A stretch of DNA of 64,000 nucleotides. Source: Diphasiastrum complanatum (lineage: Eukaryota > Streptophyta > Lycopodiopsida > Lycopodiales > Lycopodiaceae). A program made the translations under genes and the position numbers. Under the pieces are notes generated by a model. That model made no database searches. It worked only from the letters and a program-made list of their open reading frames with translations, and had not been told where the DNA came from. This document shows positions 3,709-58,863 of the stretch, in pieces. Numbering within the stretch: the first letter of the stretch is position 1; each line of letters begins with the position of its first letter. The DNA lies in the NCBI GenBank assembly GCA_029204225.1, contig CM055097.1, positions 74,982,860 to 75,046,859 on the forward strand. Direction: 5' to 3'.

Positions 3709-3847
3709 AAAAAAAAAAAAAAAAAAAAACCAGCGAGTGTCACGGCAGGGGAAGGCCCCCGCCTGGGGGCCTTCCGTGCCTGGAAGGCGCCTCGGGCCGC
3801 CCTCGGACGTCTCCAGGCGCTGGCGCTGAAGGCCCCGGCATGGGGCC
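3709..3847. other. poly-A run followed by GC-rich hairpin block
   Basis: A run of 21 A (3709-3729) abuts about 115 bp of very GC-rich sequence inside AT-rich DNA. The block contains a perfect inverted repeat with 11-bp arms (GGAAGGCCCCC at 3750-3760, GGGGGCCTTCC at 3765-3775) and a 4-nt loop, plus further GGC/GCC-rich partial palindromes. The poly-A could be the tail of a retroposed sequence to its left. The GC block has no recognised homology and no ORF of note. Confidence 0.6.
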
Positions 3848-4067
3848 TTACCCTATATGTTGATTATAGATAGAGATATATATATATTCATAACTTTAGC
3901 AATTGCTTTGAATCTGTGTGTACGACACACTCACATACATGCTGGGTTCGAACCTTCTGGAATGCACTACAATTTTTGCAAAAGGGGGCACCGCCTCCAT
4001 TTTCCAACCCAGCAGCGCCCCACCAGCTCACACCGACTTCAGCGATGGCACAATCGCCGTTAGAAGC

Positions 4068-10700: not shown

Positions 10701-11110
10701 CCTCCAATATTTTTTTTTTAGTATTTAATCTAAATTATGTTGTGTTGTCTTGTGACATGTCTTGAACAAAATTTTGATGAGATGCGGGGACTTTCAAGAA
10801 AAGACTTAATACATCAATTTCACATGTGTAGAACTTTAGAATTCATGAAGTGTAGAACTCTAGAGGCCTTTTGGTGGAGACTGGACATATCTCCATGTTT
10901 AAATACTATTGACTTTGAAAAAATAATCAATATGATGATCCATAATTTTGGTGTAATTTTGTTGGTCATGCAGTGTATCCCTTTCAAATGTGTTGTATTG
11001 CTAACTCGGGGCTAGATCTTTAAGACTGTAAATCTTGGTGTGCTCATTGCAAAAACGAAAGCGGGAGTACAATGGGCACTTTTGAAATCTTTGTATGCTT
11101 ATAGTGAAAT

Positions 11111-13644
11111 ATGAAGCGGGACAATTTTTCAACGCGACAGACATTACAAATGTAAGGTATGCTAGATCTATTCAGTTTGACTTATTGTAGTTTGAAGCAT
11201 TTACGGATTGTAGCTTTCAACAATGGTAATGTTCTATTTGCATGTTGCACTTCCTATGGAATGCACTCCACTTATTAAAAAAATTCGTATGTGAAAGAAA
11301 TAGCGGATTACTTGGATATTGTCAAAAGTTGCGTGATATTGGAATGCATAGTGTATCTTGTTTTAATTAGCAATTACAATTTACTAATCAACAATTGCAA
11401 CGTGCAAATCAACAATTGCTTCAATATGTGCAACACACTAGTGCTGAAAACAATGCACTCAAGCATGCTATGTTGGAGTTGAATGCTACAATCACTACTC
11501 TTCGGGGATCAAACCAAGAAATGTTGGAATCCATGGAAAAGTTGTAATCTGAGAGTTTAAAATCTATTGTTGATATAAAAGTTATAAAAAAGGCAATGAT
11601 GAAAAAAAAAAGAGAGAGAGTACCGATGAAGCATATTGATAACTTATCTACACGTAGCGGCAATTAGAAAAAAAAAAATTCAAGCATTCAAATATGTTTT
11701 TTTATAAACTGTTTATTTGATTTGTATTTGTCATTTAAGATTGATTTGCATTTGGTAATATGCATTATCAATTTATTAAACATAATTTGAGCTTTATATG
11801 TTTGTTGCAGATCATGTTTGGTGGCAAAGAACTATTTGACAGATCGTTCATGCATCTGATCATCTTTAAGTCGTGTTTTACCAAGAAAGTCAGCAAAGGC
11901 AATGATGAAAAATGCTCGGTTTGAAAAAATGAAAAATGAAATTGTAGAGATTGTTTTGAATAAGGTTCAAACTTACGTGGATGCAAATAATATAGTAGAT
12001 GCATGTGATGTTTCTGGAATTAGGAGAGATATTTATTCTACTTTTTTTAGAATAGATAAAGAAGTTTTTTCTCAAGTGACGGTGAAGAAAACTTATCTTC
12101 CTCGTCCATGTCGGGTAAGATTAACAAGAAATTATTATAATGACGGAATGTTCAAAGTAGTTGGCCAACCACTTCATATAATTGAATTATACAAATCAGA
12201 ATATGGTGAGCTCAATTACAACGATTGCAATAATATTTTCCATGATATTGAAAATATTCTAAAATACATTATTCGATTTTATAAACTAGACGAATATCAG
12301 GTAAATGGAAAGATCATTATTGTAATAAAATTGAATGAATCCGAAATGATCAAAGGTCAAAAGTTGGAACGAGCGAGTTTCACTTTAATGAACAATATTT
12401 CAGATACAAATGATCGAACGTTTAGTGTTCAATCGAAAAATCACATATGGTGGTTGACGACATTCCAGGTATACTTATCAAAAAAAAAATTAAAGTATCG
12501 TTATTAACATCTCATACATTGCCATTTTTTATTAACATGTCATGCATTACTTGCCTCTCTACATGTCTTGAAAGATGACTATAAAATACTTTCATGGATG
12601 TTTTCACGAACAAATTATGGCGAAATTATAAAGAGACATTTGGAGGGTGAGAAATTTACAGTCGAAAACCATGGAAGCTTTCAAATTCAATGGCACCTTG
12701 CAGGGGATTTGAAAACATTGAAATGTATGCATAATGTCTCTCATGGGGCAACATCAAAACATCCATGTCTTTATTGCATGAAGGATTGCTATAATATGAA
12801 TTTGGGACAATCAAATACTAGCCCAACACGAGAAGCAAAAAATCCAAATATGAAAAGTGTTCTGCCAATTTCATTAAAAAATGTTCACATATGCACATTG
12901 CATGTTGAGGTCTGAAAAACTTATTTACCTGCATATTCTCCTTGCATGGAATCATAACCCGAAGTCTGTGGCTAAAGCAGCTATTAAGAGGTTGGAATAA
13001 GTTCTTTCAAAGGCAAGACTACATAAAGGGAATGTCACCATTGAAAAAAGTGACAGACTCTTCGGAGAAAAAAGAAATGTTCCTAATAAGCCATCAATTG
13101 GAGGTGCTAAAGCAAGAAGATTCTTATCCAATCACACATGCAAAAAATCTAGTGTCATATACGGAAAGAAATTGTTCAAGCAACAACTAGAAGTAATTGA
13201 GTGGAAAAGAGACAAGTGTGGAACAACTTAGACAAACTCATAGGTGTTACTATTATCAGAAGATATGAGGACTTTGCAAAATCATTGCACCACATTTGTA
13301 AAATCTGTACATGATTGTTGGGGAAAGGACAACATTACACGTTACATGGTACTAATTTATTTCATTATATGGTACTTATGTCATTTATGATTATATATTT
13401 TTGTACTGATGTTACTTATTTCAACTCTTGTTTGCAGCACATCTTTCTTCATCATGCAACTTATTTTGCAAAGGAATATGAGAGCTTAAGTATCTAGTCG
13501 TCACAAGGCATGGAAAAATCACATTGGCAAGCAAGAGAAACATTTCATAGAGCTACAAATCATGGAAGACACAATTCAAAAAATAATTATTTAGTTCAAC
13601 TTTTTCAGTGGTTTTACAAAAGAGCACAATTTAGATATCAAGAT
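11111..13644 (+). pseudogene. X gene 1, transposase-like, copy 1
   Basis: A multi-exon gene with a short first exon from ATG 11111 to a GTAAGG donor at 11152, an acceptor at 11212-11213, exon 2 with a coiled-coil-like Gln/Asn-rich stretch, and an acceptor CAG at 11808-11810. The largest exon runs about 11811-12468 to a GT donor. It begins with an MMKNARFEKMKNE helix and includes LPRPCRVRLTRNYYNDGMF and IIIVIKLNESEMIKG. The exon at about 12560-12911 carries IQWHLAGDLKTLKCM and HPCLYCM. Further parts near 13440-13600 include FAKEYESLSI and HWQARETFHRATNHG. The order (acidic strand, GDLK.L.C, zinc-like CxxC, late E-K-S-H block) fits an RNase H-fold DDE transposase. Assignment is inference, and the copy is not whole. 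Confidence 0.6.
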
Positions 13645-13733
13645 TAAAAAACTTGCCAAATGTTGCGATTTTTCGTAAGGCATTCAAATTCATAACAAAA
13701 GAGAGATCCTTATAACATGTCAATAATCTATTA

Positions 13734-13815
13734 CAAAAGATTGTTTCATCATCATCCTCTTCAAGATTTAGACGGATGGTACTGTCATGAAAAAATAATC
13801 TCTTTTCATATGGAT
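13734..13815 (-). pseudogene. X gene 2, C-terminal remnant in copy 1
   Basis: On the minus strand the peptide FLDPYEKRLFFHDSTIRLN, followed by an acidic tail, matches the last exon of gene 2 in X copy 2 (46635-46752). It is convergent with gene 1, as in copy 2. Upstream exons are not present here. Confidence 0.7.
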
Positions 13816-14639
13816 CCAAAAATACTAAAAATAGTGCTAGAAAAATAGTGTTAAGTTTCATTGTGACTTTTATTGAAATAATGATTTCATTTTCACATGC
13901 TGTGAAGGATGCAACTGGTGTCAAATCAAAAGAAATCCTAGGGGATAGAAATGCATGATCCAAATGAAGCAATAGACTAATATCACAGCAAAGTCATAAC
14001 ATTATCCTAATAACTAGAAATGCAAAATTATCATAATAATCACTTTCATAGACAAACAAACTCGCACATATCTTATTTTTATTACTTGCAAAATGTGTGT
14101 GCTCTCACCAAGGAACCATGTAAATATGGATGAAGTTGGTTGTAAACGCCCAAACCACTACCACCGTTCTGTGATTGAATAATTACCTTATGCATAATTA
14201 AGATTTTGACTGACGAAACAAATAGGAAGAAGACGACATTATCTTACTAAAGATACTTGCTCCCATTCTAGAAGTACAAGCATTAGTTGAGTAGAATTGA
14301 GATGCTTGAGGGAAAAAGTATTTGTGAGCACTTCAATTGCACAGCCAATTGTTGGCTACTTATTAGCTAACATAAGTAGCTTTGTATTTGGGATAGGAAC
14401 GACAGGCTACAAGCTTCGGGAACAACTCGTTCCTATTCAAACGCAGCCTGAGTCGTTTTGCACCAGGCCAGTTATAAGAGATCTTATTCTTGGGTTCGAT
14501 AAGAATCAGTTGGCAACTTTTTGCAACATTTTTCAAGAAATTTTCAATGGACAATGGCAATGCGGACATTCTATGTATGCATTGAAGTACATATCAACAC
14601 AAAAAGAGACCTGCTTCACCATACCTTCCATCCCCACCT
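13816..14639. other. no gene recognised
   Basis: An ORF at 14297-14662 (121 codons, plus) has no recognised domain and may be the start of the following LINE or chance. The rest is AT-rich without supported features. Confidence 0.4.
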
Positions 14640-43576: not shown

Positions 43577-44229
43577 GACTATTTCACAGGCCTTGCAGAA
43601 TTCTTTGAACTTGGTGGAGATATATTCTCCCCCTCCATCTGTATGTAGAGCTTTTATTGTTCTTTGGGTCTGATTTTCTATAGATGCCTTGAACTGCTTG
43701 AAGAATTTGAAAGTCTCGTATTTATTCTTCAAAAAGTAAGTAGCAGTTCTCCTAGAAAAATCATCAATAAAAGTCAGAAAATAAAGAGCTCCCCCTGTGG
43801 AAGAAGTCTACATTGGGCCATAAAGGTCACTATGTACAAGGTCTAGCAAATCTTTAAAAGTGTGAACAAAATCTGACGTGAATGGATGTCTAGCATGCTT
43901 GCTGATAATACAGCTTTCACATGGGAAATCAGATTTGCTAATAGATGGAAGACCTTGCACTAAGTTCTGACTTGATATTTCTTGAATACTCTTGAAATTT
44001 AAATGGCCTAGTCTGAAATGCCTCAACAAATGATTTGATTTAGAAGTAGAAATAAGAGCTTGACTACTAGTAGAATAACAGTGACTTAATTTGTAAAGAT
44101 AGCTACATCTTCTACCATAAGCTAGGACTTTCCTAGAATTCCCAAGAATAGTGCAGCCTTCTGTATCGAATTCGACCCTACGACCAGAATCAGTGATTCT
44201 GCTTATAGAAAGCAGGCTTATAGTGAAAT

Positions 44230-46566
44230 ATGAGGCGGGACGATTTTTCAATGCAACATAAACATTACAAAAGTAAGGAATGCTAGATCTATTCGTATTG
44301 ATTTACCGTAGTTTGATTCATTTACATGATTGTAGCTTTAAAATTGGCAATGTTCCATTTGCATGTTGCTCTTCCAATGGAATGCACTCCAATTATTCAG
44401 AAAAATGCGAAAGTTGTAGAGAATGCTACTGCAATAGTTAGAGAATTGAGAATGAACAATCATATGAATATAGATTTGTGGGTGGATGGATCAATTTATC
44501 CTAATGATCCAGCTACCAATTTGTGTCCAGATTTAAAGTCCGTAACTCATCTTCTCAGATATGTATGTGAAGGAAATAGTGGATTGCTTGGATATTGTCA
44601 AAAGTTGCGTGATATTGGAATGCATAGCATATCTTGTCTTAATCAACAATTACAGTTTGCTAATCAACAATTGCTTCATTACATGCAACACACTAGTGCT
44701 AAAAACAATGCACTCAAGAATGCTATGTCATAGTTGAATGCTACTATCACTACTCTTCGGGGATCAAACCAAGAAATGTTAGAATCCATGGAAAAGTTGC
44801 GGTCCAAGAGTTTAAAATTTGTTGTTGATATAAAAGTTATCAATAAGGCAATGATGAAGAGGAAAAAAAAGAGGGTACCAATGAAGAATATTGATGACTT
44901 ATCTACACATAGCGGCAATCAGAAAAAAAGAATTCGATCATTCAAGTATGTTGTCATATAAACTGTTTATTTGATTTGTATATGTCATTTAAGTTTGATT
45001 TGCACTTGATAACATGGATTATTTATTTATTAAACATAATTTGAGTTTCATATGTTTGTTGTAGATCATGTTTGGTGGCAAAAAAACTATTTAACAGATC
45101 GTTTGATCATCTTTAAGTCATGTTTTACCAAGAAAGTCAGCAAAGGAAATGATAAAAAATGCTCAGTTTGAAAAAATAAAAAATGAAATTGTAGAGACTG
45201 TTTTGATTAAAGTTCAATCATACTTGGATGCGATTGTGATACAAGGTGCATGTGATGTATCTGGAATTAGCAGAAATGCTTATTCTACTTTTTTTAGAAT
45301 AGTTAAAGAAGCTTTTTCCCAAGTGATGGTGAAGAAAATTTATCTTCCGCGTCCATATCGGGTAAGATTAGCCAGAAATTTTTATAATGACGGAATGTTC
45401 AAAGTAGTTCGCCAACCATTTCATATATCTGAATTATACAAATCAAAATATGGTGAGCTCAACTACAACGATTGCAATAATATTTGTCTTGATATTGAAA
45501 ATTTTCTAAAATACATTATTTGATCCTATAAACTAGACGAACATCAAATAAATGGAAAGATCATTATTGTAATAAAATTGGATGAATCTGAAATCGTCAA
45601 GAACATTAAAATGTGTGTATAATGTCTCTCATGGGACAACATCAAGGCATCCATGTCTTTATTGCATGAAGGATTGCTACAATATGAATTTGGGACGATC
45701 AACAAACATTGGCCCAATAAGAGAAGCTGAAGATCCAAATATGAAAAGTGTTCTGCCAAATCCATTAAAATATGTTCACATATGCACATTGCATGCTGAG
45801 GTTCGTATTATTGAAAAACTTATTTACCTGCATACCGGAGTCTGTGGCTAGAGCAGCAATTAGGAGGTTGGAAATAGTTATATCAAATGCAGGACTACAG
45901 AAAGGGAATGTCACGACTGAAAAAAGTGATAGACTCTCCAGGAAAAAAGGAAACATTCCTAATAAGCCATCAATTGGAGGTGCTAAAGCAAGAAGATTCT
46001 TATCTAATCACACATGCAAAGAATCAAGTGTCAGATACGAAATTTGGAGAGAAATTGTTCAAGCCACATGAACACTAGAAGGAAATAATCGAGTGAAAAA
46101 GAGACAAGTGTGGACCAACTTAGACAAACTCATAGGTGTTATCAGGAAAGAAAACCTATCATCAGAAGATATGAGGACTTTGCAAAATCATTGCACCACA
46201 TTTGTAAAATTTGTACATGATTGTTGGGAAAAAGACAATTTTACTCATTACATGGTGCTAATCTATATCATTATCTGGTGTTTTTCTCATTCAGGCTTAT
46301 ATATAACTAATCAAAACTATTGTTTGCAGCACATCCTTCTTTATCATGCAACTTATTTTGCAAAGGAATATGGGAGCTTAAGTATCTGGTCATCACAAGG
46401 TGTGAAAAAATCTCATTGGCAAGCAAGGGGAGCATTTCATAGAGCAACAAATCATGGAGGACACAATGCAAGAAATAAATATTTAGTTCAACTGTTTTAG
46501 TGGTTTTATAGAAGAGCACAATTTAGATATCAAGCTAAAAACTCGCCAAGTATTACGATATTTTGA
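44230..46566 (+). pseudogene. X gene 1, transposase-like, copy 2
   Basis: Exon 1 is ATG 44230 to donor GTAAGG at 44273. The acceptor TGTAG ends at 44335, and joining across this ~63-bp intron keeps the frame into KLAMFHLHVALPMEC. Exon 2 contains VENATAIVRELRMNNH, DLWVDGSIYPNDPATNLCPD and a Gln/Asn-rich coiled-coil stretch (LNQQLQFANQQLLHYMQH), then a basic end (MMKRKKKRVPMK) that may be a nuclear signal. A second intron runs from GTATGT near 44947 to the acceptor at 45064. The later part has IIIVIKLDESEIV, HPCLYCMKDC, HICTLHAEVRIIEKLIYLH, EYGSLSIWSSQGVKKSHW and FHRATNHGGHNARNKYLVQL. It is parallel to copy 1 but with different parts lost. Function as a DDE-type transposase is inferred from motif order, not from a recognised family. 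Confidence 0.6.
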
Positions 46567-46752
46567 AAGGCATTCAAATTCATAACAAAAGAGAGATCCT
46601 TGTAATATATCAAAAATCTATTACAAAAAATTATTTAATTATCATCATCATCCTCTTCAAGATTCAGACGGATGGTATTGTCATGAAGGAATAATCTCTT
46701 TTCATATGGATCCAAAAATTCTAAATTTTTTCTCTTGCTCATATCAATGTAA

Positions 46753-47402
46753 TGTGAAAGATTTCAGATCCTTAAGATCCAATCTACTTGAATGATCTTT
46801 GGTTAGAAAGAGAAATACACTACCAATTTCACCAATGTAGAAAAATCAGCATCTACACACAATTTGAGATGCAAACACTAATAGAACTTGATCAAACTTG
46901 AATGAAATGATTATGTACTGTTGCTGTCCGTACAAAACCAGCAAGCTACTGTATTTCACACGTGTGGATCCAAAAATAGCAAATATAGATCATTCTACAC
47001 ATAGAATTGCAAGCAATCACCAAGATAGTGCACCAATGGATAGTAGAACCCAAGAGAACCATGTGTAAGCATGAAATGAGATAGAGAAGAGAGAAGATGA
47101 CTCTCTCCACGAGTTACATCCTTCTATAGCAGGTCCAAACCCTATTTGGACACTTGGCTTTCCCATCAAAATGCTGACCCTACCAATTTTGGGTCTAGAT
47201 TCAATGTACCCAACTTATTCAAATTGAATCTACTCAAACTCGCATTCTATCTTTCCCACACTTTCAAAAAGTGTTTATTTAAATGAAATTTAGACTAATG
47301 AATTTTGAAAAGTCAACCTCTAAGTCTAAAACAAGTTTTGGCCTCAATATGCCAAATATGGAAATATTGCAAAATGTGATGAAACTAGTTGAATCTTTCA
47401 CA
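46753..47402 (-). repeat. 3' LTR of copia A
   Basis: TGTGAAAGATTTC...AATCTTTCACA on plus. Palindrome CACACGTGTG at 46957-46966. The purine tract, read on minus as GAAGAGGGAG, lies next to it at 47403-47412. Confidence 0.95.
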
Positions 47403-47985
47403 CTCCCTCTTCAACTAGTTTTAGCATAGACTTCGATAATACTCCAAGTGAAGTCCTATGATTCATGAACAAGTCTTTTCCCAATGCTTTGGTGAAGATA
47501 TCAGCTACACATTCCCTTGAAGACACATGTTGAAGCTCCACCTCCTTTGCAATGACTCGCTCCCTCACAAAATGATATTGTATCTCAATATGCTTGCTCC
47601 TACCATGAAAGATAGGATTGGATGCCATTCTTTGGGCTGATTGATTGTCACAAAAGATGATTGGGCTCTCTGAAAAATCCAGCAAGTGAAGATCCTTGAT
47701 CATCCTCTTGATCCATACCATCTCCTTTGTGCAATGTGTAAGAGCTTTGTACTCGACCTCACTAGATGACAATGAGATAGTGGCTTGTTTCTTTGACATC
47801 CATGATATAGCTCCATCACCTATGAAAATACAATAAGAACTAATGGATTTCCTATCCATTATATCTCCAGCATAGTCCGAATCTGAAAATCCAAAAAGAT
47901 TAGGTGATGATCCCTCATACAATATGCCAAAACCTCGAGTTCCAATGATGTACCTCAAAACTCGCTTTCCTAGCTTCCAATGCTC
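47403..47985 (-). CDS. copia A RNase H region
   Basis: About 190 codons: VLRYIIGT-type start, FGFSDSDYAGDIMDRKS, SSSEVEYKALTHCTKEMVWI, FCDNQSAQRMASNPIFHG and CVADIFTKALGKD, ending KLVEEGV next to the purine tract. It resembles the RNase H of element E. It joins the foreign segment at about 47985, where the foreign frame and the copia frame differ. Confidence 0.9.
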
Positions 47986-49030
47986 CTAGCATAGTTTTTG
48001 CCAATAGAACTTTGATCCACATAAGAATGATCTTCTTCCTAAGAATAGATCTCCTTTCAATGATCATGTAATGCTCAAAATAGAAACAACCATAATTGAT
48101 ATAGAGAATAGTGTCTACTTGGGATGCTTCACTATTTCTTACATCAATTTCACATGTAAAAATGTGACTAGAACATGAAGAACCAAATAGAATGTAAGTG
48201 AGATGATTCCACCATGCTTCCAACTCTGAACTCTCTGGAAAAATACAACAAACAAACAATAAATATGAGTGATCAACTTTTGCTTGCATGTCTCCTCCTC
48301 CTTTGTCCTTTGTTGCCTTGTATCCACCATGATACTCCAGGAATGAGCCTCCATCTTCATCTTGCCACAAGAAACCATCAAACCTTGGAAATCCATGAGT
48401 AGGTGAGTACATAAATGATGCAAATCCAGCACCAGATGACTCCATAAACCAAGTAGTTTGCACTAGTCCATCTTCAAGATCTACTTGACACAAGAAAATG
48501 ACCATGAATTCACCAAAAATTGACAATCTCCAAGTATTGGCACCAAGTAGCTCAACACTTGAGAACTTAGCCATGGATGAGTGACATAATGAACCTCCAA
48601 TAGCTTCATTTCCATCAGCAAAATCAGCCAAGAATGCTAGTACAAATCCAACATCAAAACAATGCTCACCAATGTAGCTAGTTTTGCCATATCTTGACAA
48701 TTTGCACACATCCACATGAAATTGCTCAAACATGAGATAGAACAAGTAAAGTAAACTTGAACAACACTTATTTTCTGCTCCTTTGACCATACTTGAGTCT
48801 TCAATATGCTGTAAAAACAGATCCATAACACCCTTGCCAATTACCTCTCCTTTGATGCTCTTGACTAGCTCCAAATTGCCACCTTCCCTTTTGACTAGTT
48901 GAAGCGCTTTGAGATCAACTTCTTGATCTTCAACTTGATCATCAGAGTCATTGAACAAACTTTGTTTTCCAGATCCATTACTTGATTTTACAGCAATATA
49001 ACATCCATCCACTTGCATAGCTCCATGTAC
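47986..49030 (-). other. foreign open segment carried by copia A
   Basis: About 1 kb, open in one minus-strand frame (ORF 49018-47915, 367 codons including a tail that runs into RNase H sequence). Landmarks: GNLELVKSIKGEVIGKGVMD, DVCKLSRYGKTSYIG, ADFADGNEAIGGSLCHSSMA, VDLEDGLVQTTWFMESSGAG, SPTHGFPRFDGFLWQDEDGG and LFGSSCSSHIFTCEIDVRNS. It aligns with the 3' half of the foreign segment in element B, apparently with frame kept over most of its length. It sits where the RT should be. No family recognised. Confidence 0.75.
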
Positions 49031-49042
49031 ACGAGAAGATCT

Positions 49043-51532
49043 TCAGAAAGATGTTCCACTCTTCATAAGAGATTGATACTCAAGATCCATTGCTTGGATC
49101 CACTCTTCTTTCCTTGCTTGATCTACACTTGTAGGCTCATCCAAAGAGGTTAGGAAAGCAACATAATTTCCAGAAACTACTTGCTTACCCTTTTGATCAT
49201 ATCTGAGCCTTGAAGGTACTTGTCTTTCTCTTGATGTTCTCCTTGGCTTTTGACTTGATGAAGGTCCATCATCACCACCATCCAAAGTAGGATCCTTCTC
49301 ATCAACATTAAGAATGCTAGATCCATCTACTTTACCATCAATCATGCTTGAAGACACCTTTGGAATGTTTCTCTCATCAAAAATGACATCTCTACCAACA
49401 ATCACTTTGTTAGTAGAAGGAATGTAAACCTTGTAGGCTTTACTCACCTCACTATATCCAACAAAAATACCTCTTCTTGAAGATGGATCCTCCTTGGTCC
49501 TATCATCAAGAGTAATGTTGACATAGCATGTGCATCCAAAGGTTCTTAGAAAGTTGACACTCGGCCTCCTCTTGAATAGCATCTCAAAAGGTGTCCTTCC
49601 ATCCAAAATAGCACTCGGCCACCTATTGCACAAGAAATTGGCACACAACAAAGCTTGATCCCAAAATGGTTTGTCAAGATTAGCACTTAACCTCATAGCT
49701 TTAGAACTTTCACATAAAGTCCTATTCTTCCTTTCAGCCACTCCATTTTGTTGTGGGGTCCTTGATGTTGTATACTCCCTCTTGATCCCATGCTCATCAC
49801 AAAAGGCCTTGAACTTGTTAGATATGTACTCACCACCATTGTCACCTCTCAAGCACTTGATATTTGTGGAGAATTGGTTCTCCCTTGCATTCTTGAACTT
49901 GACAAAGACATCATACACTTCATCCTTGCTCTTTAGTAGATAGATCCAACAAAATCTACTAAAATCATCAATGAATGCTACATACATCTTAGCTCCACTA
50001 TTGCTAATTGTAGTGAATCCATGAATATCCGAATGTACAAGTTGAAAAGGCTTTGTAGATCTAGAAATAGATCTAGTATAAGGTAGTGTATGTGACTTAG
50101 ATAAAGCACAAGACTCACAAACATGCTTGTCATTACTTAAGGAACTTGGAAGACCAATCACAACCTTCTTCCTTGCCATTACCTCCAATGACTTGAAGTT
50201 GTGGTGTCCCATCCTTTTGTGCCAAACCTCTTGATTAGAAATTTGCTCCCTTGCAACACATCCAAATTGGTTAGCAATAACACAAGCATCAAGTTTGAAC
50301 AACTTCCCTTGACTTTTACCTTTTCCAATCAAGACATCCTTCCTTTTGATCAAACAAGCATCTCCATCAAACTCCACCTTGAGGCCCTTACTTAGCATTT
50401 GACTCACACTAAGCAAATTCTTGGTAATAGATGGAATAAACAAGACATCCTCCAAATGAAAATTCCTATTTGTAGAGAGAGAAATAGGAATTGTGCCAAT
50501 CCCTTTGATTGCACACTCACCATCATTGGCCGTGTAGATCACCCTCTTGTCATCTCCATATGCCAACAAAGAAGTGAAATACTCTTTGTGAAAGGTCATG
50601 TGTGAACTTGCTCCACTATCAATCCACCAAGGATCTAGATCTCCATCATTAGCAAGCATACATGAAGACATCACAAAAGCATCATCATTTGCATCTTGCA
50701 CATCCAAACCATCCTCATCAAGAGTAAGATTACCTTGCTTGTCTCCTTGATCTCTCTTCTTCTTGTAGCACTCACTTGCAAAGTGTCCTTTGATGCCACA
50801 ATAGAAGCACTTGAGCTTTGATCTATCCTTCTTTTTGCCACTTGAAGAAGCATCCACTTGATCTTGCCCTTTAGAGCACTTGCTTTTGGTTTTGCCCTTG
50901 AATTTGCCCTGTGTGAACATAGCATCCTCTTGAAGTGTCGATGTAGATCCACCTCTTGCTTGAAGCCTATATTCCTCATTGATCAAGATCTCTTGAAGAT
51001 CCATCAAACTTGGCAAAGTCTTCTGAATAGCAATACTTTGAACAATGTTAGCATGAGCATCCAACAAGCCATTAAGAATCACTTGAATAAGCTCTCCTTG
51101 CTTAATGCTTTCATCTATGCAAGCTAACTCATCATTCAATGCTTTCATTCTGAAAACAAAAGTACTTGGACTTTCTTCATTCTTTTGCAAACAAGAGAAG
51201 ATTTGCCTTCTTAGAGTCAACACTCTAGAAGTAGACTTGGATTCATAAAGCTTCTTCAATGAATTCCAAGCTTCCAAAGATGATGTGCACTTACCAGCTT
51301 CCTTGAGAAGTTCATTGGTAACATTCATCTTTATCATGTGTAGAGCCTTCTTGGCCCTCTTGTCATACCTCAATTGATCTTGTTGTGTTGCTGGTCTCTC
51401 CTCCAAACCTACAACAATATCCAAAACATCATTCATCTCAAGAAGTAACTCCATCCTCACTTTCCATAATGAATAGTTGCTTGAGGTAAGCCTATCATTG
51501 GCTTCCAACATGACTCCAATTGAGGTTGCCAT
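49043..51532 (-). CDS. copia A gag-protease-integrase polyprotein
   Basis: 829 codons from MATSIGVMLEANDRLTSSNY. Gag (WKVRMELLLEMND, LEAWNSLKKLYESKSTSRVL) is followed by one CCHC knuckle (CFYCGIKGHFASEC, about 242-255), protease motif WWIDSGASSH (about 302-311), the pre-integrase region (LLSVSQMLSKGLKVEF), the HHCC domain (WHKRMGHHNFKSLE, CESCALSKSH) and the integrase core with HSDIHGF, RGDNGGEYIS and NGVAERKN. A linker with RRTSRERQVPSRL and the first residues of the RT region (WIQAMDLEYQSLMKSGT) follow. The ORF ends at the border with the foreign segment. Confidence 0.95.
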   Translation of the reverse strand: MATSIGVMLEANDRLTSSNYSLWKVRMELLLEMNDVLDIVVGLEERPATQQDQLRYDKRAKKALHMIKMNVTNELLKEAGKCTSSLEAWNSLKKLYESKSTSRVLTLRRQIFSCLQKNEESPSTFVFRMKALNDELACIDESIKQGELIQVILNGLLDAHANIVQSIAIQKTLPSLMDLQEILINEEYRLQARGGSTSTLQEDAMFTQGKFKGKTKSKCSKGQDQVDASSSGKKKDRSKLKCFYCGIKGHFASECYKKKRDQGDKQGNLTLDEDGLDVQDANDDAFVMSSCMLANDGDLDPWWIDSGASSHMTFHKEYFTSLLAYGDDKRVIYTANDGECAIKGIGTIPISLSTNRNFHLEDVLFIPSITKNLLSVSQMLSKGLKVEFDGDACLIKRKDVLIGKGKSQGKLFKLDACVIANQFGCVAREQISNQEVWHKRMGHHNFKSLEVMARKKVVIGLPSSLSNDKHVCESCALSKSHTLPYTRSISRSTKPFQLVHSDIHGFTTISNSGAKMYVAFIDDFSRFCWIYLLKSKDEVYDVFVKFKNARENQFSTNIKCLRGDNGGEYISNKFKAFCDEHGIKREYTTSRTPQQNGVAERKNRTLCESSKAMRLSANLDKPFWDQALLCANFLCNRWPSAILDGRTPFEMLFKRRPSVNFLRTFGCTCYVNITLDDRTKEDPSSRRGIFVGYSEVSKAYKVYIPSTNKVIVGRDVIFDERNIPKVSSSMIDGKVDGSSILNVDEKDPTLDGGDDGPSSSQKPRRTSRERQVPSRLRYDQKGKQVVSGNYVAFLTSLDEPTSVDQARKEEWIQAMDLEYQSLMKSGTSF

Positions 51533-52120
51533 GTAGCAATGACCTGATCTTCTCTTTCAACCTGTTTCAATGCACAAATCACTCCTTTGAGCAACAACAA
51601 ATGCTTTCAAAAGAAATCACCAAGATTTGAAACTATCTCACAAATTCTCTTCTAGCACTTATCCAAGCAAATCAACACATAGAATCATGGAATCTTGATC
51701 AACCTATGATCTATCCTCAATCTAATGACTTTTGCCACTTCCTAAGATTGAAACACACTCAAATGAGGTCCAGCAACCTCACTATCTAGAGATCCAATCA
51801 AAATTAGGGTCTTGACAAAATTACAAAAAATTGACTATTCCAAATCTACATGCAAATGTTGAAAATTTGATATGCAATCTATAAGCCACCACTTAGACTG
51901 AACCAATGATCCAAAAATCGGCCAAATCCAGCATGTGAATTCAAAAAACGGAATTGAACAAGTATATTGACCTATTTAGTGTTTTGATCTACAAAAGATC
52001 CAATCTACAAAAGCAAAACATCTGATTTTGGTGTAGAATCCTCTCTAGCATGCTCTAGACTTGATATCTTCACCAAATCGTTGATAGATCTGATTTCCTC
52101 CTTCATAACCTGAAACACAA

Positions 52121-52132
52121 GCTCTGATACCA
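52121..52132 (-). other. primer-binding site of copia A
   Basis: Minus-strand TGGTATCAGAGC directly after the 5' LTR. Confidence 0.92.
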
Positions 52133-52783
52133 TGTGAAAGATTTCAGATCCTTAAGATCCAATCTACTTGAATGATCTTTGGTTAGAAAGAGAAATACAC
52201 TACCAATTTCACCAATGTAGAAAAATCAGCATCTACACACAATTTGAGATGCAAACACTAATAGAACTTGATCAAACTTGAATGAAATGATTATGTACTT
52301 GTTGCTGTCCGTACAAAACTAGCAAGCTACTGTATTTCACACGTGTGGATCCAAAAATAGCAAATATAGATCATTCTACACATAGAATTGCAAGCAATCA
52401 CCAAGATAGTGCACCAATGGATAGTAGAACCCAAGAGAACCATGTGTAAGCATGAAATGAGATAGAGAAGAGAGAATATGACTCTCTCCACGAGTTACAT
52501 CCTTTTATAGCAGGTCCAAACCCTATTTGGCCACTTGGGTTTCCCATCAAAATGCTAACCCTACCAATTTTGGGTCTAGATTCAATGTACCCAACTTATT
52601 CAAATTGAATCTACTCAAACTCGCATTCTATCTTTCCCACACTTTCAAAAAGTGTTTATTCAAATAAAATTTAGACTAATGAACTTTGAAAAGTCAACCT
52701 CTAAGTCTAAAACAAGTTTTGGCCTCAATATGCCAAATATGAAAATATTGCAAAATGTGATGAAACTAGTTGAATCTTTCACA
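52133..52783 (-). repeat. 5' LTR of copia A
   Basis: Partner of 46753-47402, followed by the TGTAA target duplication. A TATA-type box CTATAAAAGG read on minus lies at 52501-52510. CACACGTGTG lies at 52338-52347, downstream of the expected transcription start. Confidence 0.95.
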
Positions 52784-54191
52784 TGTAACCCGAATAAAGG
52801 GCCATTGCAGATGATCTTTTCGTAGTCTCATTGGGAGTATAACCCAATATCTTAATAGCCAAATCTCTTTTCACAAAAATTATTTTATATGTTCCTCTTG
52901 CGTACTTATGGCCTCCTAAACAAACTGATAATGATTTGATTGCCTTAATGACAGTGGTTGCATATGGATTAAAAGATGAATGACATACACAAATCTCATT
53001 ATTTTGAAAGTGTTTCAAATAATGAGATAGAGACACATCTTTTCTCCCGGCTGATACACCACGGACGCCTCCATGTCTCATATCAAAGGCATCTATTTTA
53101 ATAGCATCCTATAAATGAGAAAAGAAAATAAATCTAGAATTATACATAACACTGCAAACTCAATAAGAAAATTGAACAATATCAATACCAATATAATATC
53201 TACTTACCAGATCATAATAATCGTAATCAATGATGTTTGCTCTACTAATGTCATGTCCTCCAATGGCCTCTACGTTTCTGGAGTGGATATATCTAGGCCT
53301 TGGAGGATATTTTTTTTGGAATTTCAAAAGTTCTTTCTCTGTAGGCAAAGTTTTTTCATAAACTTTAGATTTTTCAATCATGGCCTCCAAGGCCTCATTG
53401 CCAAATTTTCAATTGTCATCTTTATCATAATCTATCTCACTTTCAAGGTCATCATATGAGTAATCAGCAATGTCAGAAAATTCAGATAAATTTTGAGCAA
53501 AAATCGAGAGGATTACTCTCTCAAATTCAAAACATCTTCTATATCATTAAATGAAATATAACTTTCACTATTTATAAAATATAAGAGAACATCGAGTAGA
53601 GATAATTAATCAACAAGAGATGCAGATGGAAAAGAATCAGAGAGGATTATAGAACGAGGGAGAGTTTTTTGATAATCTGAAGCCATAAATGCTTCAGCTT
53701 CAACCCCTATATCAGTATCTGCATCATCTACATCAACTGGAGCAGGTGCGGATACTTCGATCAATGGAACAGTTGAAGATTCAACAGACTCATCATCTGG
53801 AATCTCAATAGTTATGTAAAAGACAAATGCCATTCCTTTGATAAGAAGGCGACATAACCTTTTGTGGATATCACAATATATATTTCTTTTGAAATGGTCA
53901 TGCAGGTTAGAGTACTTTCTATTGTGTTTATGCTTAGAGGATGGTTGGGAATGCACAAGGTCCTGAAAATGAACGAAACAAAAACTATCTATATCCAAAA
54001 CAGGAGTACTAATAATCTGAGAAAAATTATCAAGATAAGAAATTAAATCATAACGATTCTCATAAAGTATATCGATATCGAAAGGAGCAAAAGAAAATAC
54101 TAGCAAAATACCCTAATTTCTCAAATGAAATGTCACTAGCATTAGAAAAATCCAGAAGTTTGTTATCTGAGGACATGGAGGAACTAGCCAT

Positions 54192-55992
54192 ATTGAACCT
54201 GATATCGATTCTACGCAACCAAATGATATCGGTAGAGAATGAACAAGAGTGCGCGCGTTGATCCGATATCGTTAGGATGAAATTGAAATTTGATGCGAGC
54301 ACACGTCAAGCTAATATCGATTCAGTGTGCCTGAATGAATACGACCATGCACTATTTGAGAAGGCGAGCGTTGATTCGATATTGCGAGATAGAAAGAAAA
54401 CAAAAAGACTAGTGAGTTCAGAATAAAAGATCACAAAATCGAAGTATGACAAGTGGTGCCCATATTTATAGCCAATTCTTGTTGAACACATCCATACATT
54501 TGTCAAATAACGAATTGAAAAACACAGCCTATATTTATCCAGCAATCAGAGTGAGACATATTTGTACCTACGCCGGAATACATCAACTAGTCTATCACTA
54601 GATTCAACGAATCATCATAAGCCTTGACCCTAGAATCTGTACCTGCACTGGAATACATTAAATATTCAATCAATAGCCTCTTCGAATAATCATTAAACAA
54701 ATAATAAACAAATGATAAATGGACATCATTAAAAAATGTGTACGAGGAGAAATATTACAATCTCTCGTCCTATTTAAGCAGAGTAAAGACAATATTTTTT
54801 CTTTTGAGATAATGTTTATTCAGAACATTTTCATTAGTTGTTCATAAAGCGCTCCAATATAAATTTTCTGCATATCAGATATCGGATCATCGCGCCTGGC
54901 AGAAGATGGTTATTCTCCATTTGAACTGCGCGCGTCGAATCGCTATTGCAGGAACAAATTTTTTTTTGAAATTTTGAAAACTATTGGACCCCTTATGCAT
55001 GCTCAAAGCTTGATTCGGTAGACTCTTCATACTGTCCAAAATTACGCAGAATCTATCGAGTCAAGCTCTGATCATTCATATTCCGTCGAATATAGGTACA
55101 GCACGCGAGAATAGCACCTCTAGTTTTCACATGCTATATATGTGCGTCGATTAGCTATCGGATGAAATACTGGCTACCGGATCAGCGTGTCTTTGGAGAA
55201 GACATTGACTTTTCACTTGGACTGCGCACGTCGAAGCGCTATTGTAGGGAAAAAAAAATTTGAAACTTTTTTTAAATTTGGAAGGTATTTTGCATGATCA
55301 AAGTTTGATTCGATCGACTCTCATACTATCCAAAGCTAAAGAGAATTTATTGAGTCAAGCTTTGATCATTCATATTATTTTCCAATATCGGTTCAGCGCA
55401 TGAGAATAGTCTCTTTGGTTTTCACATGTAGTATATGCGTGTCGATTTGCTATTGGGTGAAATAATGGTCGTTGGAATTTTTCAGAAATTATAATGATTG
55501 GATATAGAAAAGGTCAGATATTTATAGTTTAATCTTGTCAATTTCAGCAATAAATTGTAGATGTGACCATACTTTTGTAGCTTTAATTGTAGATGTGACC
55601 ATACTTTAGTTGAAATTAATTCTGGTTTATTTGATATCGACTAATCATTTTGATGATAGATGGATATTTAGTTTGATTCGATTGACAAGTCTCAGAGTAA
55701 TCATCATTGTAATCCGAGCCTCGACACGTTTGCAATCATTTCGGATTTTCTCTATATATACTGATGGACGACGTTGAAATTTTTTTGTCTAAAGTTCTTA
55801 CAGTTCTCTACATCCATGCGATAGCGATTCAGCGTGCTCAAAACAAGCTTCCTACGATCCGCTATTACTCACGTGCGTCCATTCACTACCAGCTATCGGC
55901 TTGGTTGAGTTCAGGTATCGGTTCGATGCGCTTGACCTGACTTATGATCCTGGGTTCTCCTTCTTTGCGCATTGATCCGATATTGGACATTA
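54192..55992. promoter_or_regulatory. divergent intergenic region of X with eight inverted-arm modules
   Basis: The region lies between gene 2 (minus) and gene 3 (plus). It holds modules of the form GATATCGGTTCAGCGCGC, ~34 bp, GCGCGTTGATCCGATATC (arms vary). Approximate module starts and ends: 54201-54270, 54313-54383, 54878-54947, 55089-55161, 55173-55243, 55384-55456, 55818-55890 (weak right arm) and 55914-55984. The two modules nearest the genes end 8-9 nt from the ATG of gene 2 and gene 3. Spacer sequences differ between modules. Modules 3-4 and 5-6 are related by a ~295-bp tandem duplication. They are probably protein-binding sites for an X-encoded factor, or promoter elements. Confidence 0.75.
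54871..55465. repeat. 295-bp diverged tandem duplication in X
   Basis: Unit 1 (about 54871-55165) and unit 2 (about 55166-55465) share the module pair and the intervening text (GAGTCAAGCT.TGATCATTCATATT, AATAG..CCTCT.G.TTTTCACATG). Divergence is substantial, so this duplication is old. Confidence 0.75.
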
Positions 55993-56451
55993 ATGGCGCG
56001 GACCAAGCAAACAGCACGAGGCCATCCTGATGCAATACCAATCTCATGAGCTGGTCAGGAAAACTCACCACCACCACTTCCTCCTAGGCCAAGGGATAGA
56101 AGAAGAGACCCACCCTGGCTCAAGGATATTCGAAAGCTACAGAAGACAAATAATCTTCTGATTCCGAAAGCTCACACATAGAGATCCATCAGACAGGTTA
56201 CAAGAAGTCTATCTGCAGATGTGAGATGGATGGTAACAGCAATTGAGACGCTGCACACTACATATGAGGATTTCCAAGTGAAATCTTTTTCAGATAGTGT
56301 TGTTGCAGTTGTCCATGCCAAGAGGGTGACCGTCATGCCCAAGGATTTCAACATTGTGTTCCGGCTTTGGGACACATATGACAAATTTGCAAAATACTTT
56401 AGACTTGCTCCCTCCTCTCCTCCAAAACAAGATTCAGAGAGGAGAAAATGA
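55993..56451 (+). pseudogene. X gene 3: histone H3-like domain
   Basis: From ATG 55993 the frame begins MARTKQTARG, identical to the first nine residues of canonical H3 (with Met) but with G in place of the K9 position. A shortened Pro/Arg-rich tail follows, then WLKDIRKLQKTNNLLIPK (H3 alpha-N, REIRRYQKSTELLIRK), VRWMVTAIETLHTTYEDFQV (alpha-1/alpha-2 of the histone fold) and VVHAKRVTVMPKDFNIVFRL (H3 HAKRVTIMPKDIQLARRI). The length, order and fold positions match H3 throughout, without introns. About two in-frame breaks make it a pseudogene here. It is clearly diverged from the replication-type H3. The ATG lies 8 nt after an inverted-arm module. Confidence 0.85.
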
Positions 56452-56538
56452 AAGCAATCTCGACCATCCCGGTTTGGTATTCGTATATAGAGCGGGAGTG
56501 TTTCAAAGAAGAGGAGGTCTCATGACCCTCCAAATAAA

Positions 56539-57201
56539 GTGAGGGATTTTTCCAAGCCATCTCCTCTGGACGAGATTCTTTCTTCTAGGCATTCTCCTCC
56601 CAATTCTCCTCCTAAGTCTCACTCTCCTTCTCCCAAAACTCCATTTCTACCTTCTCCTGCTAAATCTTCCTCTCCTAATAAATCTCCTCCTAAATCTCCT
56701 CCTCCTACCCCCATAAATATTAATTCCCCTCTACCTGTTCTAGGAAATGATTTAGATGATTTTGTTAATGTAAAGATAGAATCAATTTTGAATGACAATT
56801 CTTTTTCTGGTTTATCTATATTACTTCCGTCACCCCTTGCACTTGCCTTTGTAAATACTCCTCAATATGTACAGTATGAGCAATTGTTAAACACGTATCT
56901 TAAAGCTTTAGGTCCTCGATACAGTTTTTGGATGTCGAAGACCAATGTTGGTCTCTCCCTTTCTAGTTTAGATACATGTGAATTAGAAAGTAGGGATAAA
57001 AATGCTAGGTGACAATGTAGGAGGTGGGGACCATTCAGTACTGGATGGAGTTTTTCTAGACCCCATTGTTTATGGATGTAGCCTTTTTTCCCCTCAATTC
57101 ATGGCTGCATTTGATTTCCTTGATTTCAAAAGTCTGCACGATGATATGCTCCAATACGTTAGATTGAAGACTCCAATTCTCGTGTTGCCATACATAACAA
57201 A
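56539..57201 (+). pseudogene. X gene 3 continuation: Ser/Pro-rich region and unknown domain
   Basis: In the same frame as the H3-like part and directly downstream, about 160 codons start with a Ser/Pro/Lys-rich stretch (SPPNSPPKSHSPSPK, SPNKSPPKSPPPTP), reminiscent of SPKK-type DNA-binding or CDK-target repeats. A non-repetitive part follows (VKIESILNDNSFSG, NTPQYVQYEQLLNTYLKALG). A neighbouring frame (57002-57205) continues with FSPQFMAAFDFLDFKSLHDD and ends at a GTAAGT donor (57202). It could be a C-terminal extension of the histone-like protein or a separate gene. Confidence 0.5.
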
Positions 57202-57382
57202 GTAAGTGTCTTTTTTTTTTTTCAGATTTTATTATGTGGAATTTTTCATATGAATTTGATTTCACATTAATTCTCATAGATGTGTTGTTTTTCGATTGCA
57301 ATGATCATTAAAGCTTATATGTCTTGTCCTTATACGTCAATGATGAGGGTGTGTGTAATCCAGTTTGTTTAAAGATGAACTC

Positions 57383-57386
<4 letters not shown>

Positions 57387-57415
<29 letters not shown>
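57387..57415. repeat. (AC)n microsatellite
   Basis: About 14 AC dinucleotides, lying in a presumed intron of X gene 3. Confidence 0.95.
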
Positions 57416-57419
<4 letters not shown>

Positions 57420-57423
57420 TGCC

Positions 57424-57505
57424 AGGAGCCATATCCAAAAAATACAGGAACTCTTTCCAGTAAATGCAAAAGCATATACGAAGCTAAAAATTGTTGATGC
57501 AGAGG
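57424..57505 (+). other. possible further exon of X gene 3
   Basis: A short open stretch between an acceptor-like TGCCAG and a donor-like GAG|GTAAAA, with coding-like text (SHIQKIQELFPVNAKAYTKL). It is too short to be sure. Confidence 0.35.
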
Positions 57506-57517
57506 TAAAAATTTATC

Positions 57518-57674
57518 AATATTGGTTCGACGTGCCCTTGTAGTTATTGTTTGGTTTCTTTTCATAACATGCGCACTGATCTGATATTCAAACAATATTT
57601 TTGGATATCGGTTTGACGCGCGCTTATTTTCATTGTAGATTTAATTATAACATCATGCACGTTGATCTGATATC
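57518..57674. promoter_or_regulatory. two inverted-arm modules at the right border of X
   Basis: Modules 57518-57589 and 57603-57674 have the same architecture as those upstream of genes 2 and 3 (left arms GGTTCGACGTGC and GGATATCGGTTTGACGCGC; right arms GCGCACTGATCTGATATT and GCACGTTGATCTGATATC; spacers about 34 bp). The last arm ends at the junction with copia D, so it may be the terminal or subterminal sequence of X. Confidence 0.75.
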
Positions 57675-57675
57675 T

Positions 57676-58863
57676 CATGCTTGGATGCATCACTATCAAT
57701 GTACCAGGTATCCTTGGCTTCATCACTTGCCATTAATGCTGTAATGAACAATTTTGAACTTTTAACTGTATCATCTTCATGTTGATGATCATCGTATTGA
57801 TGTTGATCAGTATAATTATCTTCACAATAATAGTCATCAAATTGATGTTGATCAGAATAATTTCTCACTTGCCATTTGTCTTTTTTTTGTTCCATCTCCT
57901 TCTGTTTCTTGAAGCATTCACGCTCCCAGTGGCCAGGTTTGTTGTAGTACCTACAATTTCCAGGTTTATTTTGTCTTGAATAGCCGCATCCTTGACCTCG
58001 TCCTTGATTCCAATTTTCTCGATTTGGACTATCATTGACTTGCTCATGAAATTGTTGAGATGATCCCCGGCTTGAGTTTTCTCCTCTCGATTGATACCTT
58101 CCACGGCCAAATCTTCCACCTCGTCCTCTAACTGCAAGAGCTTGATCATAGCTCAAGTTACGATGATTCAAGTTCTCTTGACGTTGCTCTTCTTGCAAAA
58201 GCAATCCACCTAGTTCTTCATAAGGTTGGAAGATTTTGTCTTGTGGCTATACTAGTCACAAACATCTGATGTGACTCACTCAGACTATTCAATGTCAATT
58301 GCATGATCTCACGATCTTGTACTCGCTCTCCAACTGCTGCTAATTGGTCACAGATCTCTTTGACCTTCAATATGTGATCTGCAATAGTTGCACCATCATC
58401 CATCTGCAATGTATGCAACTTCATCTTCAAAAATAGTATTCGAGATATATTTGTTGTTTCAAACAATGCCTTCAATATATCCCACGCTTCTTTTGGTCCT
58501 TTCGAATCTAAAATATAGGGAATAATTGCATCTCTAACTAATAAGTTGATGACATTCTGGGGCTTTTTGTTTTTTCCTATCAAATGCCCGCTGATCTTCT
58601 TCAATCACTAGCCTTTTTCTCTTCACCTGTCACGATCTCCCATAGCTCCATTTCCATCAAAATGTTCTTCAGTTTGAATTTCCAAATTGCATAGTTGTCG
58701 ACACCTTCCAATTTGCTTGAATTATTTCTCTAATATTGAAAGGTTGAAAAGAGCTGAAGAGTATGATATCAATTTGATATCGCGAAAGATATCAAGTACT
58801 AGAGCTTTCGATCTGATATCATGTTGGAACCAAATAAAAAATAGTGAAATTGCTCTAATACCA
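57676..58863 (-). mobile_element. Ty1/copia fragment D (gag to protease start), likely 5' part of C
   Basis: Minus strand. Gag UBN2-type text at 58604-58218 (GPKEAWDILKALFETTNISR, CDQLAAVGERVQDREIM), then an RGG-rich RNA-binding stretch, a degenerate zinc knuckle (CRYYNKPGHWEREC), His/Asp-rich repeats and the protease start (DTWYIDSDASKH), where it meets X. A primer-binding-like TGGTATTAGAGC (minus) at 58852-58863 is followed by a TGTCGG LTR-like start. Order and orientation fit copia C on the other side of X, with roughly 60 codons of protease unaccounted for. Old and broken. Confidence 0.8.

What the first reader, a model, noticed from the sequence alone, without database searches (positions are those of the whole stretch)
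54201..57674. Ten modules of paired inverted arms at constant spacing in element X
Ten times the sequence shows a left arm like GATATCGGTTCAGCGCGC followed by a right arm like GCGCGTTGATCCGATATC. Left and right arms strictly alternate along the sequence. The gap between arms is 33-35 bp in every module, although spacer sequences are unrelated and distances between modules vary from about 85 to 1600 bp. Arm centres are about 52 bp apart, close to five helical turns. Two modules are copies of two others through a tandem duplication, leaving eight independent cases. Conserved arms, fixed spacing and free spacers point to a dimeric or looped protein-binding site, such as a transposase or regulator site, or to a structured RNA, and not to a decayed dispersed repeat.
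Basis: seen in the sequence. Interest (0 to 1): 0.92.

Follow-up and report, generated by a model that had tools for sequence, protein, structure and literature searches.

The report
Paired docking sites in clubmoss transposon
A very abundant jumping-gene family in a clubmoss genome carries eight to ten copies of a two-armed DNA signal whose arms lie nearly always about 53 bases apart, apparently paired landing sites for a control protein of the element, and it also carries a histone-like gene.

Summary
All ten arm pairs are present, arm starts 52-53 bp apart (gaps 34-35 bp), with no unpaired arm in the window's part of X. The host genome matches Diphasiastrum complanatum. X belongs to a high-copy multi-gene mobile family carrying a histone H3-like gene (1436 candidates; 40 of 40 scored are 86% or more identical). 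The exact arm motif occurs 2356 times genome-wide, 0 for the reversed-pattern control. Among the first 100 places listed, 10 of 10 head-to-head neighbours within 60 bp lie 52-54 bp apart. In ten sampled places each sampled arm has a partner 51-54 bp away, and nine of ten places match X relatives. Between two X subfamilies arms differ at 8 of 233 sites, spacers at 48 of 250 (P = 2e-8), while dead copies decay alike in both: past selection on the arms, not on the spacers. Arms do not co-vary as RNA stems. Best reading: paired DNA sites for a dimeric regulator, probably encoded by the element, placed in leaders, promoter region and a predicted intron. The binding protein is not identified.

The parts
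54201..54270 (.). module 1 (arms 54201-54218 and 54253-54270, spacer 34 bp); 10 bp from the predicted ATG of the minus-strand gene
54313..54383 (.). module 2 (spacer 35 bp), in the predicted leader of the minus-strand gene, downstream of a TATAAAT at 54464-54470 (minus strand)
54878..54947 (.). module 3 (spacer 34 bp)
55089..55159 (.). module 4 (spacer 35 bp)
55173..55243 (.). module 5, tandem duplicate of module 3
55384..55454 (.). module 6, tandem duplicate of module 4
55820..55890 (.). module 7, in the predicted leader of the H3-like gene, downstream of a TATATAT at 55753-55759
55914..55984 (.). module 8; right arm ends 8 bp before the ATG of the H3-like gene; a module ends 10 bp before the ATG in two diverged relatives
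57518..57588 (.). module 9, in a predicted intron of the H3-like gene
   Evidence: intron read by eye
57604..57674 (.). module 10, in the same predicted intron
   Evidence: intron read by eye
55993..57012 (+). decayed histone H3-like gene (MARTKQTARG start, histone fold, long S/P-rich tail; four in-frame stops)
   Evidence: Pfam PF00125 E 2.6e-9; PDB H3 matches; frame read
52783..54190 (-). decayed minus-strand gene (starts MASSSMSSDNK), no known family found
44216..46752 (+). left part of element X with coding remains of a larger plus-strand gene, no known family found; a second copy of this part lies at 11097-13829
46753..52782 (-). younger copia LTR retrotransposon nested in X (LTRs 98% identical, TGTAA on both sides by eye); not part of X

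Best explanation
Each 71-bp module is a bipartite DNA recognition site: two copies of an 18-bp half-site (RATAKCGRWTCRRCGCGC) facing each other with centres 53 bp, about five helical turns, apart, so that both present the same face of the helix. A sequence-specific protein, most likely encoded by the element, binds the two half-sites as a dimer or as two dimers in contact. The element places these modules in the leader/promoter region between its divergent genes and in a predicted intron of its H3-like gene, where the bound protein would switch on or protect transcription of the element (an element-specific activator or anti-silencing factor). Shown: anatomy, spacing, copy number class, occurrence of sampled arms mostly in this family, selection on arms and not on spacers, retention in diverged relatives. 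Inferred: the protein, its dimerisation, and the effect on transcription or silencing.
For: 20 of 20 arms form 10 of 10 pairs at 52-53 bp in the window. In 25 sets (the window, 22 other copies, 2 diverged relatives), 129 of the 136 pairs found within a 30-80 bp search range lie at 52-54 bp, 106 of them at exactly 53 (tallied). Exact half-sites genome-wide 2356, reversed control 0. Of the first 100 places listed, 10 of 10 plus-to-minus neighbours within 60 bp lie at 52-54 bp. Ten sampled places: 10 of 10 sampled arms paired at 51-54 bp, 9 of 10 places match X relatives with arms masked. Majority sequence over 6-9 copies per module: seven of 18 arm positions identical in 20 of 20 arms; spacers 29% alike, near chance. 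Fixed differences between subfamilies: arms 8/233, spacers 48/250, inter-module 89/1022. Modules end 10 bp upstream of the H3-like ATG in two diverged relatives, of whose upstream DNA blastn aligns none (L053) or some (L054) to X.
Against: No binding protein was identified; apart from the histone fold no X protein piece matches a Pfam family above its cut-off, and no binding data exist. One conserved half-site has no partner. In the loci tallied, 30 further arms at or above the thresholds used had no partner at threshold within 30-80 bp (13, 3, 11, 3); some lie where the partner is worn or cut, but I did not check each. The matrix was built from the window's arms and the copies were found with X queries, so module presence in them is partly expected. 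Non-CpG inter-module DNA also differs slowly between subfamilies (80/964 against arms 6/152, P 0.07), so part of the low arm divergence could be general constraint; spacers are the fast part. The grouping and the 70% majority rule are mine. L057, one of ten sampled places, showed no similarity to X outside the arms.
Confidence: 0.72

Rival explanations
1. The modules are sites for the transposase or an accessory protein (like TNPA of Spm/En) and serve excision or synapsis of the element ends and not transcription.
For: CACTA elements have repeated 12-20 bp motifs thought to be bound by an element protein, and in soybean Tgmt* they form palindromes (PMC2613891, passages seen). X is a dispersed high-copy family.
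Against: The modules are internal as far as traced: about 4 kb (nested copia excluded) from the left limit and at least 2.5 kb from the right limit, and they abut start codons and sit in a predicted intron. The true element ends were not found.
Confidence: 0.13
2. The modules act as RNA: each forms a stem-loop in the leader or intron that controls splicing, translation or small-RNA production.
For: Inverted arms can pair; module 8 folds with z -5.4; modules 1, 2, 7 and 8 are downstream of TATA-like boxes, hence probably transcribed.
Against: Arm complementarity within modules is no better than between modules (11.2 vs 11.7 of 18, permutation P 0.92; with G-U P 0.94-0.96), and lower on the majority sequences (12.9 vs 13.7, P 0.996). 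Position 9 would be a mismatch in 10 of 10 modules of X on the majority sequence. 1 of 10 window modules has z below -3.
Confidence: 0.08
3. Copying artefact: an ordinary dispersed repeat or array whose arms happen to be retained.
For: All modules may descend from one ancestral module; 3/5 and 4/6 are duplicates and 2/3 share some spacer sequence.
Against: Spacers otherwise differ as by chance while arms are 78% identical, and between subfamilies spacers change about six times as fast as arms.
Confidence: 0.04

Closest known systems
VANC target motifs of VANDAL elements of Arabidopsis (PMC5735166; passages seen)
   Same: A short element-specific motif repeated in introns and intergenic non-coding regions of one mobile family, in high density only there, bound by an element-encoded protein that removes DNA methylation.
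   Different: The VANC21 motif is 9 bp, arrayed in one orientation and often in tandem repeats that vary in number; here an 18-bp half-site occurs in inverted pairs at a nearly fixed 53 bp with free spacers. No VANC- or MULE-type domain was recognised in X by Pfam.
Subterminal repeats of CACTA elements such as soybean Tgmt* and Tgm1; in Spm/En bound by TNPA (PMC2613891; passages seen)
   Same: A motif of 17-20 bp with a GC-rich and an AT-rich part, arranged in palindromes within the element.
   Different: Those lie within 159 bp and 732 bp of the two element ends; here they are internal as far as traced and next to start codons, with nearly constant spacing. No TNP2-type domain was found in X.
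Histone H3-like gene H3L in a hAT-type element of Pyrenophora tritici-repentis (PMC3538342; passages seen)
   Same: A DNA element that carries an H3-like gene and multiplies it.
   Different: Fungal, 26 very similar H3L copies, hAT dimerisation domain; here a clubmoss, 1436 candidate copies (40 scored) and diverged relatives, a long tail after the histone fold, no hAT domain found.

Membership tests
CACTA (En/Spm) elements | TNP2-type transposase domain | tested here: not met
   No such Pfam match in 20 ORF pieces searched; the genes are broken, so a miss is not final
CACTA (En/Spm) elements | CACTA terminal inverted repeats and 3-bp target duplication | tested here: inconclusive
   Element ends not reached
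CACTA (En/Spm) elements | repeated motif confined to the subterminal regions | tested here: not met
   Modules lie about 4 kb from the left and at least 2.5 kb from the right limit traced
VANDAL / VANC system | element-specific motif concentrated in non-coding parts of one element family | tested here: met
   sample of ten genome places (9 of 10 in X relatives)
VANDAL / VANC system | motifs arrayed in one orientation, often as tandem repeats | tested here: not met
   Inverted pairs at nearly fixed spacing
VANDAL / VANC system | MULE-type transposase and VANC gene | tested here: not met
   No such Pfam match, on pieces of broken genes only
VANDAL / VANC system | protein binding to the motif and loss of DNA methylation | not testable with these tools
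   needs ChIP-seq and bisulfite data
hAT element with H3L (Pyrenophora type) | H3-like open reading frame inside the element | tested here: met
   (frame broken in the window copy)
hAT element with H3L (Pyrenophora type) | hAT dimerisation domain | tested here: not met
   No such Pfam match, on pieces of broken genes only
structured RNA (hairpin) element | compensatory changes between the arms | tested here: not met
structured RNA (hairpin) element | unusually stable folding of each module | tested here: not met
   1 of 10 window modules with z below -3

The most novel reading that the evidence does not exclude
The modules are sequence-encoded seats for the element's own H3-like histone. A 71-bp two-fold symmetric module has about the length wrapped by an H3-H4 tetramer (about 70-75 bp, recalled). 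An element protein binding both arms could seed a particle containing the element's H3 variant at every promoter of the family, giving it a private chromatin state that host silencing does not recognise.
Probability: 0.04. Interest if true: 0.95.

Novelty: new variant of a known kind. Interest (0 to 1): 0.62.

Why it matters
Motif arrays through which a mobile element is recognised by its own protein are known, as far as I recall, from few systems. Here the grammar is unusually strict (two facing half-sites, 53 bp, free spacer), is kept in diverged relatives within one clubmoss genome, occurs in a family with more than a thousand candidate copies, and comes with an element-borne histone H3-like gene. 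It offers a natural experiment for anti-silencing or element-specific transcription outside flowering plants; the arms are rich in CpG in a window otherwise poor in it.

Tried and rejected
RNA hairpin or small-RNA precursor: disfavoured for lack of co-variation and weak folding. Viral origin: pattern scans for the module in IMG/VR and in prokaryote genomes found 0; ten single-arm hits in viral contigs had no second good arm at the right distance; two protein scans of viral contigs confirmed no relatives. The protein search with the H3-like gene listed 13 histone-domain proteins at 30-42% identity, some with long tails; none was identified as viral by me, so the origin of the gene stays open. 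Minus-strand gene: no homologue and a useless single-sequence model (pLDDT 33); left-gene piece likewise (pLDDT 36); a left-gene piece gave no PDB match. Small mobile elements with target duplications as the cause of each module: none seen by eye in the flanks. Element termini: not found; the apparent left limit at 44216/11097 is exceeded by L022 and L028. A family search for host histones failed because the machine was busy. Bacterial promoter and terminator scan: at chance level and not applicable.

Opposite letters at arm position 9: 10 of 10 modules in X on the majority sequence, but by eye 7 of 10 of the exact pairs in the genome list, so I rest little on it.
Full report
What was checked. 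Arms fitting an 18-base motif pair left-to-right at 52 or 53 bp, start to start, in all ten; the gap is 34 bp in modules 1 and 3 and 35 bp in the others. On a matrix built from the 20 arms every arm scores at least 15.6, the best other site in the window 12.9, and no unpaired arm of that strength occurs in the window's part of X; in 20 Markov versions of the window no pair at 52-54 bp reached 11. Modules 3-4 and 5-6 are a tandem duplication.

Where it lies. The window is G000:C6:74982860-75046859 of a 1.745-Gb genome. Contig C16 of that genome is 51,441,102 bases, exactly the contig length recorded for a Diphasiastrum complanatum protein, P0014, and P0014 matches that contig at 100%, so the host is taken to be this clubmoss. 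Element X occupies at least 44216-46752 plus 52783-57676; a copia element (46753-52782, LTRs 98% identical, TGTAA on both sides by eye) sits inside it. Other copies continue to the right past module 10 and a little further to the left. The true ends were not found. A second copy of the left part lies at 11097-13829.

Its genes. To the right of module 8 an ATG opens a decayed reading frame that begins MARTKQTARG, contains a histone H3 fold (Pfam PF00125, E 2.6e-9; PDB H3 chains) and runs into a serine- and proline-rich tail, with four in-frame stops. On the other side a minus-strand gene of unknown family starts at 54190. TATA-like boxes lie upstream of both, at 55753 (+) and 54464 (-) (others occur too), so modules 7-8 and 1-2 would lie in the two leaders, ending 8 and 10 bp before the ATGs. 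Modules 9-10 fall in what looks like an intron of the H3-like gene (donor at 57507/57508, acceptor in the longer copies; read by eye, not confirmed by transcripts). A histone H3-like gene in a DNA element has a precedent in a fungal hAT-type element (PMC3538342, passages seen).

Other copies. A 200-bp query from modules 1-2 gave 574 candidates; 40 were scored, the window itself and 39 others at 83-87%. The H3-like gene gave 1436 candidates, 40 scored, all at 86% or more. I fetched twelve copies; modules 1 and 2 are in 12 of 12, as the query implies, and 6 of 12 show further modules downstream at the same kind of spacing, L022 all ten (L030 has another two pairs in an inverted fragment). Of two 20-kb loci one has 10 of 10 module pairs, the other nine plus one degraded. 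Of eight loci fetched for diverged members, one (L050) belongs with X; of the other seven, at about 75-90% DNA identity to X, six cover the place of the duplication and all six lack it, and two (L048, L052) show the full set of eight pairs. So eight modules is probably the older state. Two more distant relatives (L053, overlapping L042 and akin to L040 and L041; and L054, the same locus as L044) carry modules just upstream of their H3 start codons, at 54 bp in L053 and 56, 53 and 54 bp in L054; in L053 a second module shows only its right arm. Blastn aligns none (L053) or part (L054) of their upstream DNA to X. In all, 129 of 136 pairs found within a 30-80 bp range in 25 sets lie at 52-54 bp and 106 at 53; the exceptions are 40, 49 (twice), 50, 51 (twice) and 56. 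Thirty further arms at or above the thresholds used (11, 8 or 5, by call) had no partner at threshold.

Selection. Among copies of the X subfamily (nine for modules 1-8, six for 9-10) the non-CpG mismatch rates are 6.3% in arms, 7.5% in spacers and 6.2% between modules (104/1661, 187/2485, 592/9495; arms against spacers P 0.12): these copies decay evenly. Between the majority sequences of the two subfamilies, which reflect the time when the lineages were mobile, arms differ at 8 of 233 sites, spacers at 48 of 250, and inter-module DNA at 89 of 1022 (ten sequences in one group and seven in the other, fewer at modules 9-10; the duplicated block, the last bases before the H3 gene and columns without a 70% majority were dropped). 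Arms against spacers gives P = 2e-8; arms against inter-module DNA P = 0.006, or 0.07 without CpG sites. On the majority sequence seven arm positions are identical in 20 of 20 arms, and spacers resemble each other at 29%, near chance.

Genome-wide test. The exact half-site pattern occurs 1166 times forward and 1190 times reverse; the pattern read backwards, 0 and 0. Of the first 100 places listed, all on C1, the ten plus-to-minus neighbours within 60 bp lie at 52 (2), 53 (7) and 54 (1) bp; the one minus-to-plus neighbour lies at 34 bp. Each of the ten sampled arms has a partner at 51-54 bp, and with arms masked nine of ten loci match X relatives. L057 does not.

RNA or DNA. If the arms formed an RNA stem, changes in one arm should be matched in the other arm of the same module. 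Complementarity within modules is not higher than between modules in the window (11.2 against 11.7 of 18; permutation P 0.92; with G-U pairs 0.94-0.96), and is lower on the majority sequence (12.9 against 13.7, P 0.996). Only module 8 folds markedly better than shuffles. This favours recognition of each arm by protein on DNA.

Mechanism proposed. Two facing half-sites, 53 bp from centre to centre, present the same side of the helix about five turns apart (inference from B-DNA). A dimer with a long reach, or two bound proteins in contact, could read this distance; the 34-bp spacer of module 3, kept in both subfamilies, shows that one base of slack is tolerated. The placement at both start codons, in the intergenic region and in a predicted intron resembles the targets of VANC21 in VANDAL21 (PMC5735166, passages seen), a protein that removes DNA methylation from its own element. 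The half-sites hold up to four CpG positions each, and the inter-gene region has a CpG observed/expected of 1.28 against 0.40 for the window, so methylation sensitivity is plausible. I therefore favour an element-encoded activator or anti-silencing factor; a TNPA-like transposition accessory remains possible. No step beyond the cis anatomy and its selection is shown.

Membership. X is not shown to be CACTA, MULE/VANDAL or hAT: no diagnostic Pfam domain was found in pieces of its broken genes, and the ends are unknown. The modules work like an element-specific motif array but differ from the two known kinds considered in orientation, spacing or place. I searched PMC for endogenous viruses with H3 in lycophytes or ferns, for clubmoss genome repeats, for transposon-captured centromeric histone, for transposase-binding subterminal motifs, for VANC, for TnpA and for H3-like genes in transposable elements and saw no description of this element or motif in the listings; that is a statement about those eight searches only.

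Noticed in passing
55993-57012; also L035, L047, L049, L051, L053, L054: The H3-like gene keeps a near-canonical start (ARTKQT) in diverged members (MARTKQTARG, MARTKQTTRG, MARTKQTARL, MARTKQTTQL; MVRTKKTTRG in one copy), while the rest of the N-terminal tail differs and, in X, a long S/P-rich tail follows the histone fold. LLIP, RW and KDF residues resemble centromeric H3 (recalled).
   Followed up: partly
P0014 (O6H91_16G009700) at G000:C16:4838227-4838955: This annotated clubmoss protein looks like a fusion of two parts of an X-like element: its first part matches sequence upstream of the H3 start in L040-L042, its last part the tail of the H3-like gene.
   Followed up: partly
L036:617-892 (+): An open stretch beyond the window's cut reads QVDSVSCGWYTICNAKHFFNW, resembling by eye the cysteine motif of ULP1-type proteases (recalled); Pfam and PDB searches found nothing.
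   Followed up: partly
L036:1567-1584, L029:8225, L027:9689, L030:1334: A conserved solitary half-site (scores 13-20) without a partner in the right-hand part of the element, in 4 of 4 copies.
   Followed up: partly
L022 reverse complement 3500-3909: A tandem array with a unit of about 111 bp at the far left of an X copy, possibly another promoter array of the element.
   Followed up: no
43808-44215 and 57677-58604: X is flanked by two parts of copia coding sequence in the same orientation, with, by comparison with another copia here, about 66 residues of the protease region missing between them; whether X inserted there with a deletion is unclear.
   Followed up: no
window, arm position 9: In every module of X one arm has T and the other A at position 9 (10 of 10 on majority sequence), so the two arms are not identical; 7 of 10 in exact pairs of the genome list (by eye).
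   Followed up: partly
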